Positions 56,405 through 64,000 of a DNA stretch of 64,000 nucleotides are shown one piece after another. Position numbers and translations under genes: made by a program. A model generated the notes under the pieces. The model worked only from the letters and a program-made list of their open reading frames with translations, was not told the DNA's origin and did no database searches. This DNA is from Whalleya microplaca (taxonomy: Eukaryota; Ascomycota; Sordariomycetes; Xylariales; Xylariaceae): positions 186,001 through 250,000 of the forward strand of contig MU385766.1 of NCBI GenBank assembly GCA_022497155.1. Direction: 5' to 3'. Every line of letters starts with the position of its first letter. Positions within the stretch are counted from its first letter, which is position 1.

Positions 56405-59016
56405 TCATCCAACCATCAAATGCCTATGTGATATAGGACCCCCGTGTTCTTTGTTAAGATGTTCGGGACTGTTGTTTGGCTTCGCCGAATCCACACTACT
56501 AGCATATGTAGAGGCACTCTCGCCGCTGAAACTTCTCGCGTTGCTAACCATGCTAATGCCACTCGCATTCCTTGACAAGGAAAGGCCATTGATACCTCGT
56601 GATCCGTTCCCAGGGCTGATTTGATTCGCTTTGTCCAGAGTCTCGCGGCAAAGTCTCAACCACACAGGCCCAAGTTCCGGGCGGTGCAGTGGGATCAGGC
56701 TAAAGAACAGACTGGCTGTTATGCGGAACAGCGTCTTACGATGTACCAGCACACCGTATGTATCTTTCAGGAAATCGAAGAAGACCTCCTGCAACATCTC
56801 CAGCAAGTCGGCATCGGGTTGACCCAGAAGGGATGTGGTATTATTGCTACCCATCTTTGAGAGGTCAAAGTTCTTTGCCGACATGAATAGTATGTTATCA
56901 TACCCACAAAGAGACTGCAGGACTTTGGCAAGATCATAGTGGATATCACCCTCGGGAGTGAGCGTATTCTCTAGCTGACAGCGCACATCAATGAAACTGA
57001 CGAGCTTCTCGTCTTCAGAGAGGATAGCATTGCTGAACACGGGGTCACCATGGATGACCTCTGCATGTACACCCTTTTCCTCGGCCTCATATGTATCCAG
57101 GAATTCGTTCAGGCGGCTGAATAACGATGCAGACAAGGGACCCAGGGCGTCATACCGTTCCCGATGTGCATAATAGCGAGATCTCAGCTTTTCTCCGTAG
57201 TTAGCATATATGTTCACGCGATGTTGTGCCTTTTCGAGTGAGTGCGCATTAAACTTTTCTCCAAGTGCTGGCGAGATCTTTAGGGACTGGGTGGAGCTGC
57301 TTTGGCTCGTATGTATAGTGTGCAATGCTTTGAGGAGAGAAAGTAGGCGGCCCTTGGTTATAGATCGGCCGGCTAGAAGGTGCGAGAAAGTCAGCCCTTT
57401 ACGATTCTCCATCGTGATGTTGTAGGTCATCGTATCAGGAATGAAGTCAACACTGTAGACAGACGGGAAGACATGTGAAAGCCCCTGTGGCATGTGGGAG
57501 TAGAAGTATAGCTCCCCGAGAATATTGCTAGACTTGCTAGACTTGATGACTTTCTCTCCCACGATTTGAATTGTGTTGAAGTCACGGGGAGGGATCATTC
57601 CGGCTTTCTTGGCACTCATGTCGGTCATGGACGGCGTAGCAGGAGCGTCCGAATCCTCTAGTAGCCAGCCGATCTCCCGCATAGTATCTAGATTCGAGTT
57701 TACCGCCAAGTCGTCAACGTAAACATCTGCATATGGCTTGCCAAAATGGATATCATCGAAGGGAATATTGAAGTCTGCAAGTTGCTTGAAGGTAAGGACA
57801 CCAATGTCTGCGAGAACTGAGCCGACATTGCCGTGGTGTGTACGCATTCTTCGAGCCGTTTGCTATACAGCTTGTCAGGGTATGGCATATTAGCTTGAAA
57901 ATGTATGTGCTTACAATGATTATATAATGGCCGGCTTTGTGCAATTGTTGCACGAGCTGGATATTCTTTTCGATAGGCGGACACGTAGAATAGTCACCTG
58001 CTACCTCCGGCACACCCACTAATGTCATATCCAGGTCAAAGCAGAACCTGCGTTGCCTAAACTTGAACTTCGGGGAAGACTTGAGTTGTTTGAGAAGATC
58101 TTGAAGCTGTTCAGGAGTCCCCACGCATGTAAAATCTGCTTTGCTGATGCCAAGACCTAGAAAAGGGATTTCGTTCTGAATCATGAGCATAATAAGGTGC
58201 GATGTGTAGTATTCGCAAATTCCGGTGCCATCATGAATACCGCCATCAAGGTTCTGGGCTGCCCAGCTTTTAAGCTGCGCAGCGCTTGGGAAGACATATG
58301 CTCCTGTATTGGCCTTCCGAGATATGGCCTTCTTTTCTTGGATATCAACGATTCTTTCAAGATCTGACCTGTACAGAGTCAATGGCTGGGATATCGAAGT
58401 TTGCATGAAATATGTTCTATCTTACTGCATCTCTGTCTTCAAGTAGGAAAAGATTGGGCTATCGCCGTCGTCTGGGAAGTAAAAGCAACCCCCATACCCT
58501 GGAGGAACGGAGAAGCGGACTCGATCAAGAATATTGGTCCAGTAGATTGTATCGCAGTCAAGCGACACCGTCTTTCTCGACAGGTGCTCCTTAGACATAC
58601 TTTGGGTGACAATATAAAGCTGCGTTGAATAAATATCAGTCGACTATAATGTTATTTACTTAAGAACCATGGTCTTAAGTTCCACTTACAGTCTCACTGG
58701 CACCTTTGGTCTGATGACATAGCTTGATAAGTTTGAAGTCAATTTTTGGAAAGTTTTTGGACACCAGTTGGCTGATAGTGAACATATCTTCGACATTCTC
58801 GTTGACGGCCATCCACAGCGTATCACCAGGCTTAAGGTGAAGATTTTCGATCAACCAGAGAAGTATTGGACGCCCGACGATGTTGATGAGAGGCTTCGGG
58901 TATCGGTAGCCTTCTCTAGCGAATCTGGAGCCGATACCGCCAATAGGCATAATAACATTGATAGGCTCGTCTAAGGTTTTGCCCCCATCTCTACTCACTG
59001 TCGATTGTAGACCCAT
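56405..59016 (-). CDS. trimodular nucleotidyltransferase - HAD phosphatase - kinase-like protein
   Basis: Four exons: 59016-58690, 58619-58426, 58368-57915, 57862-56405, 810 residues. Module 1 (about 20-250) is a sugar-1-phosphate-type nucleotidyltransferase: MPIGGIGSRFAREGYRYPKP, then a RKANTGAYVFP segment. Module 2 (about 280-400) is a HAD hydrolase: FDLDMT with Asp285/Asp287, then IIIQTARRMRTHHGN formed by exons 3 and 4, and HFGKPYADVYVDD. Module 3 (about 415-750) is an aminoglycoside/choline-kinase-like phosphotransferase with catalytic HGDPVFSN (His595-Asn602) and FIDVRC. The tail is Ser/Asn-rich. Similar module sets occur as separate bacterial capsule-biosynthesis enzymes, and fungal homologues are sometimes labelled capsule polysaccharide biosynthesis protein. 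I infer that it phosphorylates and nucleotide-activates a sugar or small alcohol in the cytosol. Head-to-head with the transporter fusion. Confidence 0.82.
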
Positions 59017-59810
59017 GATAAGCTAGTTGATCAACCTTCGGCAAATATTTGTTTGAGAACGATAAACTGCAGAGTAGAACTTTTCCGTATAATACTACAT
59101 TTAAGGGCTCGGTATCAAGGAACGACATAGGTGATAGAACGCGAAACGCGTGTCGAGAATTGTATAACTGGAATGGTGATTGTAGGAATTTCATCAATAG
59201 CACTGTCCATCCCTTCTCTTAATGTCAGGGGTATTGAAACCTACAATAACTCATTTGATCAGCTAGGAGATCTAGCCAAACATGAGCAGATAGAATGGCT
59301 CATTATAAAGCTGCTGGGGTCAGTAATAATCTCGATGGTCATTGAGTAGCTTCAGCTTTGAAGAAGGAAGGTAATGTAAAGGATGCTACTTTTTTAGGAT
59401 ATTCACCCTAAGAACAGATTGTACACACTTCACGTAACTATTAAACGAAATGAAGCGTATTAATCCATTAATATTGTTGCTTGCTGTAGAGCTGTACTAA
59501 CACGTTCTGCGTCCAAAAGATGAGACATACTGGTTCTAGACTCCGCATGTTATGTACGGGCCAGGCCGCTCCCTGCGCATACCAGTGACTATCGATCAAT
59601 GCCATGCAATGCCCACGTTTGGACTCGTCAATTCTGGTCATGTTTCTCACGCAATTTGGTATCCCTAGATGTAGATCGTGACGCCACTAGAGGGATGACT
59701 CGTGCCTTAGGTACGATTTGTTTCAAGGGTTTCTAACCCATCTGTCAGGCAGTCTTATATTCGATGATGAAGGCACTCTGTGCTTCCTCTACAAAGGAAA
59801 TACATGAAAA
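59017..59810. promoter_or_regulatory. bidirectional promoter of the glycan-module pair
   Basis: 794 bp between the two start codons (59016 minus, 59811 plus). AT-rich and without a recognised gene; a 72-codon plus-strand frame at 59131-59349 has no family features. The head-to-head layout would allow co-expression of the two genes, which is inference. Confidence 0.55.
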
Positions 59811-62290
59811 ATGCTTCAACATCGCCTTACTAACAACGTATGGGCCCTTGGGCAGCAGTCTGCCGGGTTCGTCGCTGCCCTCGCCCTTATCGCAATCCAA
59901 GTAGGCATAGGTCTGTTGATGAAAATAGCGCAGAACGATGGGAAATACAGTTTTTCAGTGCCAGGTTCTATCGCGATATCTGAGTTTTTCAAACTCTCGA
60001 TAGCGCTGGCTCTATATTCGATCCAGCTAAGCCAACGAAGAGAGCTGCAGCTCGGAGGTGGCGAATACGTATCACTTCCAACTTCAAACTCAGCAACGCC
60101 AGATATCGAGAAAGTTTCTGGTGATAATAGAGGCGAAAAAGGACTCCTTAGGAGTCTAGCTGATGAAATACCATTAGAAGCTAGGCGTGGGTTTTGGAAC
60201 TTGGCACTCTTCTATGCTTTAATCAACAATACTGTAAGGCTTAAATCCACAGGAAAGAACTACACATTGACTTTTATTCACATTAGATATTCATAGCCTA
60301 CGAGGTCGCTGACCCAGGCACTATCAGTTTAGTGCGCTCGACCGTGACGGGACTGACAGCTTTCCTTTCAACCATCTTTCTAGAGAGAAAAATCTCCAAC
60401 CTTCAATGGTTGGCTGTGGCTTTCCAGCTCTGTGGCCTAGCTCTTACTCAGTTTTCTACAGGCTCCGGAGCTGTATACAGCCTGTCAGTTTACGCATTAC
60501 TTTTCTTCCAAGTGTTCTTATCAGCTGCTTCGGGTATCTTTAACGAGTCCCTTGTTAAGGACGAAGGAGCTTCCCTGCATGCGCAGAATGCAGTACTGTA
60601 TTTTGTTGGTACACTGGTAAACTTGGTGATACATCTGGCAACCTGTGTGTTCAGTCCCACAGAGCCTGGTCTACTCACCGGATATAACGATATACGATCA
60701 GTACTAGTCATTCTAAGCAACGTGCTCATTGGGCTCGCTATTACAGCGGTATACAAATGTAAGATTTATCCTTTAATCAGCAGCAATAACGTAGCTACAA
60801 CTCCTCAAAAAGACTCTACTGACAGTTCTTGACAGATGCTGATGCCGTCATCAAGTGCCTTGCGACAGGTATTACCACGGCGTTGTTAGTTTATCTATCA
60901 TCTTTACTCTTTGCATTGCCTCTCACATTCGGAGCTTTCGTTGGGACTTGCATTATTTTTGTCAGCTCCTGGGCATATATGCGTAATCCAGCCAAAGCTA
61001 CGCAGGCCCCAGCAATGCAAGTGGCTCCATTGAGTCGTTATAAGAACCTTTTCCAGGTAATATCCCCACTATCCAATCTTTGTTCGGGCTCGTTGATACT
61101 GGATATCTTAGAGATACACCAACTACGCACTACTCACCTTCACCATCTTCACCATTTGGGTATCGGTACAGACAAGGCTATACGTCAATCATCTAGCCGC
61201 AGATGATACTGAGCCCATAACCATAGTAGAGGCGGAAGAAAATGCCAACTTGGACATTCTCGAGTCGCCTTTCAGTAAGACACTGGGATTCATCCGCTGG
61301 AACTCACCTCATTACGAACGTATACCCCTGGCAGAAAAATACCGACCATTCTTCCACACGCTGCACTACAGCGGTCCAAACATCTCTAACATAGACGATA
61401 TCGGCCAGAATTTAACCCATGACGCGTTCCAGGGGAGTACTGAGGTTTACCTCCAAGTTGCCGAAACGATGCAAATGATCCTTGATGGTGATTCTTGGGC
61501 TGGTTTCCATCAGCAGGACAATACGGCACATGGAAACACTACGTCGAAGCCGAGCACTTCGGACATAGAGGGATTACTTTACTGGCACTTCGACGCATGG
61601 GTCCACCCACTCGAATTCGCCAGCGAAGACCGAAGGAAAATATGGTTCAACGACGTGTCCCGGCCTCAGAACCCGAGTTTTGATTGCATGACCGACCCAA
61701 CCCAATCTCTTTGGAGCCCTCTTCACGACGGCCGAGCGTTCCATGTGCAGGCTCTGGCCACTGTCGAGAAACTAGTTGCCATCGGCGCCCCCTACAGGAT
61801 CGACCAGCATCTCTTCTGCACGGGGTGGGCCGACTTCTACTATATCCCGCGGGAGTTCTTCGAGGATTACATCTATCTGGCTTTGGCCTTCCACGAGAGA
61901 TTGACTTTCCACGAGGTCGCGATCGCGACGATGATTCATATCATTGACGAGAGCCGAAGGCGAATACCGGGGCGCAGTATCATCAGTCGCTTTCCTGCCT
62001 GGGGTTCGTGTTGTGCGGGAGAAGAACCAAGTGTCCGCGAAGTGATGTTCCACCGGATGGGCCATAAGCTGCATTACGATGCTGAGAACCAATTGCCAGT
62101 CGAGGCTTTCTATGCCAAACTGGACCGCGATGGCAGGATGATTGGGAAGGAGATACCGGAGCCACACTGGGTCAAGGAGAAGGCTGATCGGGAGGCTAAT
62201 TGGCGCAAAGGAACTAACATGACAGTCATTCAGGAATCCAGCGAGCGGGATGAGAAGATTGTGGAGAGCGAGAAACAAGACCCATCTTGA
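59811..62290 (+). CDS. nucleotide-sugar transporter fused to a membrane-anchored putative glycosyltransferase domain
   Basis: Four exons: 59811-60233, 60287-60758, 60836-61056, 61112-62290, 764 residues. Residues ~15-355 are a multi-span nucleotide-sugar transporter of the UDP-galactose/CMP-sialate group (PF04142): SEFFKLSIALALYS, FIAYEVADPGTISLVRSTVT, FNESLVKDEGASLHAQNAVL and YADAVIKCLATGITT. After LSRYKNLFQ the next exon, joined in phase 0 over a 55-bp intron, starts RYTNYALLTFTIFTIWVSVQ, a further transmembrane segment. A ~370-residue domain follows, with LLYWHFDAWVHPLEF, APYRIDQHLFCTGWADFYYI and YLALAFHERLTFHEVA. I do not know this domain by name; the Trp/Asp/Tyr-rich motifs and membrane anchor suggest a lumenal glycosyltransferase. 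No ATG lies near the start of the fourth exon, which supports one fused gene. Confidence 0.8.
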
Positions 62291-64000
62291 ACATTGAAAG
62301 AAGCTCGAAGTGTAAGATTTGTGTAATGCATACACGCAAGATGTTCGAAAGAACCTGAACCTCGGAGAATGGAGTTTGGGGAGGTACTTGGGATTTTCAA
62401 GAATTGTTTGAGCCTACTGAGCACATATAGGCGCTCTTTGTATTGTCTCGCAAATCGTAAGCTATTGGTAAACTGAATTATTGATTTACATCTACACTTA
62501 CATTGACATAACATAGAAGAAGTTATGAATTCCTAGCTACGATATTTGAAATCACAGATCAGTGCTTTCTTTCGTTGTGTTGTTCATTTAATCAACTGTC
62601 GGGTTCGTAGCCATTTTGATCTAAGGGTTGCGTATGTGTACTGACTGATATGTAAATGTAATGACGTGTACGGTTTAATGTTAAATTTACATAGAAATGC
62701 TTGAGTCGTCTTCAAGTGACATATGTTATGAATTTGTCTGGCTATAATATGCTGATGTATGTTTTATATCAGATGTCATACAAATAGTTCATAAGCGAGA
62801 TGACATGTCTTAACCCTATCCCATCTCATTGTCACGGTGTCTATTCACGTTGCAACCAGCAAGTTATCGACTATTCAAGCTACTTAACCAGGAAACTTCC
62901 CTCATTTTCATATCCTATATGTCACGATAATAGGGGTATTATACTTGCTCCGAGATCCATAGGCTTAAAAGAGATCTTCTAAGCAACTAGAAGATCCTTC
63001 GGATCTTAGACCTTTACACAATTTTACTGGAGTGATCACGGCAGCACCTAAATGATCATTGCACACACTGTAACTGTGATACTATAGATATAGTATTGAG
63101 TTTACATAGGTGCATATTGCTGACCCCCTATTGTTTCTATCTACAAGCGCTTGGCTAGTGAGGGGGAATGTTGTTTTATATTTTAGCTAGAGTGAGTAAT
63201 GCTCTATATTTGAATCAATCGACACGAGAGCTAGAGAGTGAACCGAACAGCCTATTCTTTACTGTGAACAATGATAGACTTGTACCAACATGATTTGCCA
63301 TCTCGGAAGCATCACATTGAGTGATATATCTGACTATATTTATAGCAGTCGTTTAAATTGTGAACATTAAAACTCAGGTGTTTTTTGAAACATAATTCTA
63401 CCTATCTTGTCCCCTTCATGCCACTCTCCATCATATACCGACCCCTGCCTTCTGTAAATATGATGCCGAATTATAGTTTGTTGCTTTATGTTTAGTATTC
63501 AGTTAGTAGCATCGAGTTCTTATATTTCATACCTTGATTTTTTAATAGGTTAATTACCTAGTTCATTCACTTATTCTCTTATAATAGCATTGTTGCAATT
63601 TCGAGTATCAAGAAGCGAAAAACTGGTGGAATAGTGGTCATGTAGTCAAGCTCGCTCTTGGTGATTTATGATAAGACAGATTGTACTCATTGTAATTCTC
63701 AACACAAGGTGAGGAGACAATTGCTTCTGTGTATGTTTGCCCATCTCTAGAAACAGGGTCATTCGAAGTGGGCTCTAAAAACCGTATTTTCCGAGGTCAT
63801 TCTTATTCTTTTACGTACATATATGTAGAAAGGCTAGTGTATATTTGTAAGCATTACGTCGCTCTATGTTTTCGATATCTGTTCATGACCATAAATCCAT
63901 AAATGTGTAATGCTCCTCTATTGCACGCCTTTGAAACGGGAGCATAGGTATCACTGCCTATGTCCTCGATATGTAATATAAAGGTAAAATAGATATGCCT
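62291..64000. other. AT-rich stretch to the window end
   Basis: No recognised gene. From about 62500 onward the sequence is clearly AT-rich with many TA-rich runs and stop codons in all frames. It could be an unmarked or point-mutated repeat, but no repeat boundary is visible within the window. Confidence 0.4.

What the first reader, a model, noticed from the sequence alone, without database searches (positions are those of the whole stretch)
56405..62290. Head-to-head two-gene module for activating, importing and transferring an unknown sugar or alcohol
A cytosolic protein combining nucleotidyltransferase, HAD phosphatase and kinase-like modules shares a 794-bp divergent promoter with a nucleotide-sugar transporter joined to a membrane-anchored putative transferase. 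Seen directly: motifs GGIGSRF, FDLDMT, HGDPVFSN and the transporter helices. Known: each family's general chemistry. Inferred: phosphorylation, nucleotidylation, import into the Golgi lumen and transfer are supplied by just two polypeptides, resembling a bacterial capsule pathway condensed into two fungal genes.
Basis: partly seen in the sequence, partly recalled or inferred. Interest (0 to 1): 0.85.

Follow-up and report, generated by a model that had tools for sequence, protein, structure and literature searches.

The report
Fungal two-gene unknown-sugar glycosylation module
Two neighbouring fungal genes appear to encode nearly a whole route for making, importing and attaching a still unidentified activated sugar; the first enzyme resembles bacterial capsule cassettes and fused enzymes carried by bacterial viruses.

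Summary
Confirmed and extended. In Whalleya microplaca, gene A (56405-59016, -) encodes an 810-aa nucleotidyltransferase-HAD phosphatase-APH-like kinase. Gene B (59811-62290, +) encodes a nucleotide-sugar transporter, an 11th helix and a C-terminal domain modelled as GT-A glycosyltransferase fold, without a Pfam family. The 794-bp head-to-head gap is real. In 79 relatives of A, 24 of 26 checked motif positions are kept.

Corrections: the three-module enzyme is not fungal-specific. It occurs in chytrids, aphelids, Capsaspora, red yeasts and, as one polypeptide, in uncultivated phages. The modules also form adjacent genes in bacterial/phage glycan loci, often with a KpsF-like isomerase or aldolase-type gene, favouring a heptose-type route: sugar phosphate, anomeric kinase, bisphosphate, HAD phosphatase, sugar-1-phosphate, NDP-sugar. 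B's domain favours a sugar over an alcohol. Sugar, nucleotide and acceptor are unknown.

The parts
58080..58968 (-). Gene A, module 1: NTP-transferase (sugar-1-phosphate nucleotidyltransferase type), residues about 17-270, over exons 1-3
57662..58058 (-). Gene A, module 2: HAD phosphatase related to EcbF/BcbF, residues about 278-392, split by the 52-bp intron 57863-57914
   Evidence: TIGR01689 E 8.6e-15, below its cut-off; PDB 1xpj E 1.3e-10; hhalign 100% to cassette HADs; coordinates
56618..57604 (-). Gene A, module 3: APH-like small-molecule kinase, residues about 412-740, followed by a low-confidence tail
   Evidence: phrog_21938 E 4.4e-13 over residues 429-719 of P0008; hhalign 99.8% to bacterial/phage cassette kinases; HGDPVFSN; coordinates
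56405..59016 (-). Gene A complete coding span, 4 exons, 810 aa
   Evidence: P0008 is the same public protein up to residue 768
59017..59810 (.). 794-bp head-to-head intergenic region (presumed shared promoter)
   Evidence: length; function not tested
59811..60990 (+). Gene B, first part: nucleotide-sugar transporter (PF04142), residues about 1-350, over exons 1-3
61118..61204 (+). Gene B, further membrane helix, residues about 375-403, which would put the C-terminal domain on the lumenal side
   Evidence: model helix 375-403; hydropathy peak 379-397, 1.31, just over the 1.3 threshold used; coordinates
61262..62149 (+). Gene B, C-terminal GT-A-fold glycosyltransferase-like domain, residues about 423-718, no Pfam glycosyltransferase family
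59811..62290 (+). Gene B complete coding span, 4 exons, 764 aa
   Evidence: identical to P0001

Best explanation
The pair is a self-contained glycosylation module. A (cytosolic) takes a sugar phosphate. Its APH-like kinase phosphorylates the anomeric hydroxyl to give a sugar 1,n-bisphosphate, its HAD phosphatase removes the original phosphate, and its nucleotidyltransferase joins the sugar-1-phosphate to a nucleotide: the logic of the bacterial heptose route (kinase, GmhB-type phosphatase, nucleotidyltransferase) with a different kinase family. B's transporter half exchanges the NDP-sugar into the secretory lumen, and B's tethered GT-A domain transfers it to a glycan there. Shown: modules, predicted folds, conserved residues, conserved linkage, profile homology with bacterial/phage cassettes. 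Inferred: order of steps, that the input is a sugar phosphate, Golgi location, that the GT uses A's product. Unknown: sugar, nucleotide, acceptor.
For: Domains and models. Of 26 motif positions checked in A over 79 aligned relatives, 24 keep their residue in 75-79 of 76-79 rows; S30 (54 of 76) and V618 (48 of 79) vary. A and B proteins share 20 exact contig lengths among 118 A and 94 B hits (jittered null mean 0.185, max 3 of 1000 runs), 7 of the 20 contigs being 62,252 bp or shorter; distances between the A and B sets co-vary (r 0.53, 0 of 5000 permutations). Gene numbers are consecutive in Anthostomella, Mollisiaceae sp. and Exophiala. A's modules match a bacterial/phage cassette of adjacent genes (hhalign 99.8-100% against 0.1-0.4% for three cross controls; Phaeobacter, Legionella, S-SKS1, Planchet). 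The cassette has a KpsF-like isomerase fused or next door in 4 of 4 strong Bacillota hits and, within 1.5 kb of the kinase, a TAL/FSA-type or an unnamed conserved gene in 58 of 80 viral loci. Both point to a sugar-phosphate input. The heptose logic is described in PMC8204981 (passages).
Against: No activity, substrate, localisation or expression data. The window's APH score is below cut-off (13.9 against 23.2); the kinase call rests on phrog_21938, hhalign and motifs. A occurs in lineages for which my searches listed no B (chytrids, aphelids, Capsaspora, red yeasts), and some Ascomycota listed with A have no B row (for example Verticillium, Pleurostoma, Lomentospora); the lists are capped, so absence is not shown. 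Four of 17 named species with both rows do not share a contig length: Chlorociboria, Colletotrichum nymphaeae, C. tofieldiae and Ophiocordyceps australis, the last from two assemblies. Eight of the 20 shared contigs exceed 1 Mb and show only the same chromosome. The GT-A match is to the fold, at 10% identity or less. The TAL/FSA and KpsF matches tested lie below NCBI's curated cut-offs. By a crude motif count, only 12 of 80 viral loci show all three modules. The one HAD seen beside the Bacillota fusions is not of EcbF type.
Confidence: 0.58

Rival explanations
1. Salvage route: A's kinase phosphorylates a free sugar at C1, the nucleotidyltransferase activates it, and the HAD module is only a proofreading or side-product phosphatase.
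For: Kinase and transferase alone suffice for salvage; the APH fold commonly acts on free small alcohols (recalled).
Against: HAD residues are as strictly conserved as the others (D285 78 of 78, D287 77 of 78), and an EcbF-related HAD gene lies beside the kinase/NTase genes in the four named loci read. Isomerase and aldolase-type partners suggest sugar-phosphate inputs.
Confidence: 0.17
2. CDP-alcohol route: A activates a polyol or amino-alcohol phosphate and B's C-terminal domain transfers the phospho-alcohol, as in FKTN/FKRP or LicD systems.
For: B's transporter half matches CMP-sialic acid transporters best among solved structures, and SLC35A1/A4 carry CDP-ribitol (PMC8587909, passages). 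The Phaeobacter cassette lies beside annotated CDP-glycerol genes.
Against: B's C-terminal domain models as GT-A, with glycosyltransferases as best matches. A phosphatase has no place in a simple kinase-cytidylyltransferase route. Few nucleotide-sugar transporters are solved, so the CMP match says little about the nucleotide.
Confidence: 0.12
3. Ketose route (a variant of the best explanation): A converts a ketose phosphate by C2 phosphorylation, removal of the first phosphate and nucleotidylation to an NDP-ketose, for example of fructose or sedoheptulose.
For: 17 of 80 viral loci carry a TAL/FSA-type gene within 1.5 kb of the kinase (one member tested against Pfam, 2.8e-13). C. jejuni capsules contain D-fructose, D-xylulose and L-sorbose (PMC10919079, passages).
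Against: KpsF-like isomerases in the Bacillota versions would make an aldose. No paper on such a cassette among the 25 listed of 32 for NDP-fructose terms.
Confidence: 0.08
4. Co-location without a shared pathway: A and B are linked for regulation only, B carrying and transferring an ordinary UDP-sugar.
For: A is listed in many lineages without a B row; many public names for B say UDP-galactose transporter.
Against: Linkage is seen in Sordariomycetes, Leotiomycetes, Dothideomycetes and Eurotiomycetes, and the two proteins' distances co-vary; the functions are complementary.
Confidence: 0.1

Closest known systems
Bacterial/phage NTase + EcbF-related HAD + APH-like kinase cassette (Phaeobacter L003, Legionella L006, S-SKS1 L004, Planchet L005)
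   Same: Same three module families, adjacent or partly fused; genes annotated as glycosyltransferase, fucosyltransferase or WavE lie in the same stretch in all four loci
   Different: Separate genes or two-module fusions there; one polypeptide in A. No transporter-GT partner like B
Uncultivated-phage single-polypeptide NTase-HAD-kinase proteins (597-659 aa)
   Same: Same three modules in one chain; in the tree the eukaryotic proteins join four of them
   Different: 28-36% identity in the best segment; phage genome setting in four loci checked; no B-type protein found in the viral scan
Heptose activation (GmhA, HldE or HddA, GmhB, HddC)
   Same: Isomerase, anomeric kinase, HAD bisphosphate phosphatase, nucleotidyltransferase logic (PMC8204981)
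   Different: The kinase here is APH-like; HAD and NTase belong to other subfamilies by profile; no isomerase gene seen beside A
SLC35A nucleotide-sugar transporters
   Different: Carries an extra helix and a GT-A-like domain on the same chain
AfGfsA galactofuranosyltransferase and other GT-A enzymes
   Different: 8% identity; no Pfam family; fused to a transporter; substrate unknown
CDP-ribitol system (ISPD, SLC35A1/A4, FKTN/FKRP)
   Same: Cytosolic activation, SLC35A import, lumenal transfer (PMC8587909)
   Different: Separate genes; phospho-alcohol transferases rather than a GT-A-like domain

Membership tests
NTP_transferase (PF00483) | Score above gathering cut-off 21.2 bits | tested here: met
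EcbF/BcbF capsule biosynthesis phosphatase (TIGR01689) | Score above curated cut-off 162 bits | tested here: not met
   54.8 bits, E 8.6e-15: a relative, not a formal member
HAD phosphatase superfamily | Catalytic DxD, conserved Thr and Lys, further acidic residues (roles recalled) | tested here: met
   D285 78 of 78, D287 77 of 78, T327 79 of 79, K367 78 of 79, D375 78 of 79, D376 76 of 79
APH kinase family (PF01636) | Score above gathering cut-off 23.2 bits | tested here: not met
   13.9 bits; Capsaspora relative 20.5, EukProt P0103 23.7
phrog_21938-type cassette kinase | Profile match and HGDxxxxN plus DxR residues | tested here: met
   E 4.4e-13, hhalign 99.8%; H596, G597, D598, N603 78 of 78; D617, R619 79 of 79
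Heptose activation pathway (HldE/HddA, GmhB, HddC) | Kinase and transferase of the families used there | tested here: inconclusive
   No heptose kinase or HddC model among the 6 NCBIfam families listed for A at E up to 0.1; that HldE and HddA are of other kinase families is recalled
Heptose activation pathway (HldE/HddA, GmhB, HddC) | Activity through a sugar bisphosphate | not testable with these tools
   Needs enzymology
Nuc_sug_transp (PF04142) | Score above cut-off 27 bits | tested here: met
   76.6 bits
GT-A fold glycosyltransferases | GT-A fold over most of the domain | tested here: met
A named glycosyltransferase family (Pfam) | Profile match | tested here: not met
   Only four weak irrelevant hits (E 0.15-0.72) among 7 members scanned; CAZy not available
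LicD/FKTN/FKRP phosphotransferases | Their characteristic fold and profile | tested here: inconclusive
   No Pfam hit and none among the 50 structural rows shown, but absence there does not exclude
WavE and other cassette-side glycosyltransferases | Detectable profile homology to B's C-terminal domain | tested here: not met
   hhalign probability 0.2 for WavE, at most 1.4 for the neighbour clusters tested

The most novel reading that the evidence does not exclude
Fungi and their relatives make a nucleotide sugar not yet recognised in eukaryotes, built from a sugar phosphate by a heptose-type kinase-phosphatase-nucleotidyltransferase enzyme that descends from the gene pool now seen in phages. 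One candidate is an NDP-D-arabinose: Whalleya also encodes one KpsF/KdsD-like isomerase (L036), and Bacillota versions of the cassette carry a KpsF-like domain or gene. In many Pezizomycotina this sugar is imported and attached by a single transporter-glycosyltransferase protein.
Probability: 0.35. Interest if true: 0.9.

Novelty: new variant of a known kind. Interest (0 to 1): 0.74.

Why it matters
If true, many fungi carry an undescribed glycan building block on secreted or surface molecules, with activation, import and transfer in two neighbouring genes. That would make the glycan directly testable by deleting one gene, give a first function to a GT-A-like family without a Pfam entry, and show a glycan-activating enzyme of phage/bacterial type that became a stable part of opisthokont genomes. 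The substrate found for the fungal enzyme would probably also help explain the NTase-HAD-kinase cassettes of bacterial glycan islands and phages.

Tried and rejected
Chance or artefact: rejected; introns, public proteins, models and conservation agree.

Alcohol transfer by a LicD/FKTN-type domain: demoted, because the C-terminal model is GT-A-like. The structural list does not exclude other folds.

B's domain derived from the cassette-side GTs or WavE: not supported.

Bacterial chromosomal relatives through genome contigs: the one scan, with exact short patterns from one protein, returned only a Cof-like HAD (L002), judged a chance match and not used. The viral scan with P0008 alone found nothing; with the alignment it found 57 loci. 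The single-polypeptide form was not seen at 80% coverage in named phages (0 of 59 and 0 of 23 matching records) or plasmids (0 of 27 and 0 of 28); 3 of 398 Bacillota genomes gave partial matches.

The ketose idea was kept as a rival; searches for NDP-fructose terms (25 of 32 listed) and bcbF/ecbF (none) gave nothing useful. Other paper searches; none of the listed papers described this pair by title or abstract start, and the lists are capped and the library partial. Only PMC8204981, PMC8587909 and PMC10919079 were opened, as found passages.

The sigma-70-type promoter scan is not meaningful for a fungus.

Nucleotide specificity from transporter residues was not pursued; it would have rested on recall. 

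Tree cautions: the composite outgroup, V_L165 and V_L155 are long branches that partly meet, 18 rows have unusual composition, the drawn root is the midpoint, and 10 of the 36 rows that I labelled eukaryotic are unnamed metagenome proteins. The nesting among phages is therefore likely, not shown.

In one search a pattern of mine for the nucleotidyltransferase start caught 8 of 33 phage ORFs; read by eye, all 33 begin with a GxGxRF-type stretch.

The rivals are not mutually exclusive (the ketose route is a variant of the best explanation).
Full report
Observation. The window lies in a 48.1-Mb assembly; the two proteins are those deposited for Whalleya microplaca, Sordariomycetes, Xylariales. 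Splicing by GT-AG introns gives A, 810 aa, four exons on the minus strand, and B, 764 aa, four exons on the plus strand. No second copy of A or B was found in the assembly by searches that score only the best candidates.

Linkage. Exact contig lengths shared by an A hit and a B hit: 20 distinct contigs among 118 A and 94 B proteins; a jittered null gave a mean of 0.185 and a maximum of 3 in 1000. Seven of the 20 are 62,252 bp or shorter, so the genes lie close together; eight exceed 1 Mb and show only the same chromosome. Thirteen of the 20 belong to named species. Counting named species with at least one A and one B row, 13 of 17 share a contig length; Chlorociboria aeruginascens, Colletotrichum nymphaeae, C. 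tofieldiae and Ophiocordyceps australis do not, the last having rows from two assemblies (my count). Sphaceloma has an extra B, and Xylogone and Hirsutella have extra A rows elsewhere. Gene numbers are consecutive in Anthostomella pinea (Sordariomycetes), Mollisiaceae sp. (Leotiomycetes) and Exophiala bonariae (Eurotiomycetes); Sphaceloma adds Dothideomycetes and Coleophoma another Leotiomycete. Pairwise distances of A and B over the 20 pairs correlate (r 0.53; 0 of 5000 permutations reach it), as co-inheritance predicts; shared species history alone would also give this, and some rows are partial. Orientation elsewhere was not seen, and the linked share over all genomes is unknown.

Origin of A. 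Relatives of A are listed from chytrids, aphelids, red yeasts, Capsaspora and protist transcriptomes (groups partly recalled). In bacteria and named phages the same three module families are adjacent genes: Phaeobacter HAD, kinase, NTase beside CDP-glycerol genes; Legionella kinase, HAD, NTase, WavE; S-SKS1 NTase, kinase, HAD, transaldolase; Planchet HAD plus an NTase-kinase fusion. Profile comparison of A's modules with these gives 99.9, 100 and 99.8%; three cross controls give 0.1-0.4%. A viral-contig scan with the alignment returned 57 loci; in 33 of the 40 that I read for ORFs, one ORF of 597-659 aa carries the HAD and kinase motifs (25 distinct sequences) and begins with a GxGxRF-type nucleotidyltransferase stretch by eye. 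Genes beside four of them (L119, L120, L122, L123) match phage families: endolysin, single-strand binding protein, helicase loader, tail fibre, ParB-like (PHROGs holds only viruses of bacteria and archaea). In an ML tree of 36 rows labelled eukaryotic (10 of them unnamed metagenome proteins), 25 viral and 2 composite outgroup rows, the eukaryotic rows form one group (100/100), joined to four phage proteins (100/98). Long outgroup branches and odd composition leave the root and the direction of transfer unproven.

What the partners suggest. Of 398 Bacillota genomes, 15 matched the kinase profile and 4 strongly (E below 1e-18, the next 3.5e-6). All four strong ones are NTase-kinase fusions with a KpsF/KdsD-like isomerase fused (2) or next door (2) (all below the curated cut-off). 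A HAD gene, not of EcbF type, was visible in one of the four short loci. Of 80 viral loci kept from 88 with the kinase, 41 hold a conserved unnamed ORF of about 330 aa and 17 a TAL/FSA-type gene within 1.5 kb of the kinase, 58 one or the other; one TAL/FSA member matched Pfam and two of the unnamed ones matched no Pfam or NCBIfam family. Many of the 80 are weak, partial matches, and a crude motif count finds kinase in 36, NTase in 39, HAD in 58 and all three in 12. Isomerases and aldolases of this kind handle sugar phosphates. With a phosphatase between kinase and nucleotidyltransferase, the economical reading is the heptose-route logic (PMC8204981, passages). Whalleya encodes one unlinked KpsF-like protein, which makes NDP-D-arabinose a candidate product; that step is speculation.

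Verdict. Nothing about the sugar, the nucleotide or the acceptor has been shown.

Noticed in passing
L119-L158 (IMG/VR contigs): Single-polypeptide NTase-HAD-kinase proteins (33 ORFs of 597-659 aa, 25 distinct) in uncultivated viral loci, several beside genes that look to me like glycosyltransferases, FkbM-like, DegT-like and epimerase-like proteins (labels recalled, not searched); four loci checked carry phage genes.
   Followed up: partly
L011:880-2997, L012:892-2991, L010, L013: Bacillota proteins fusing NTase and APH-like kinase with a KpsF-like isomerase (fused in two, adjacent in two): a sugar-activation enzyme for which I saw no description.
   Followed up: partly
L074:7500-8495 and 41 viral loci: Conserved ORF of about 330 aa (near its start ..FIGPMSKNIVD..) close to phage NTase-kinase fusions; the two members tested matched no Pfam or NCBIfam family.
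   Followed up: partly
P0103 (EukProt protist): 1178-aa A relative with two NTase-HAD repeats before one kinase; by eye the second NTase and HAD copies have altered motifs.
   Followed up: no
P0202 (Adineta vaga): B-type glycosyltransferase domain alone in a bdelloid rotifer, a possible transfer from fungi.
   Followed up: no
G000:C13:77819-78220 (L036:1009-2235): KpsF/GutQ-like sugar-phosphate isomerase in Whalleya, 408 aa, unlinked to A and B; the only other SIS matches found lie together at one C31 locus.
   Followed up: partly
window 62001-64000: GC drops to 0.39 beyond gene B, the lowest 2-kb step of the window.
   Followed up: no
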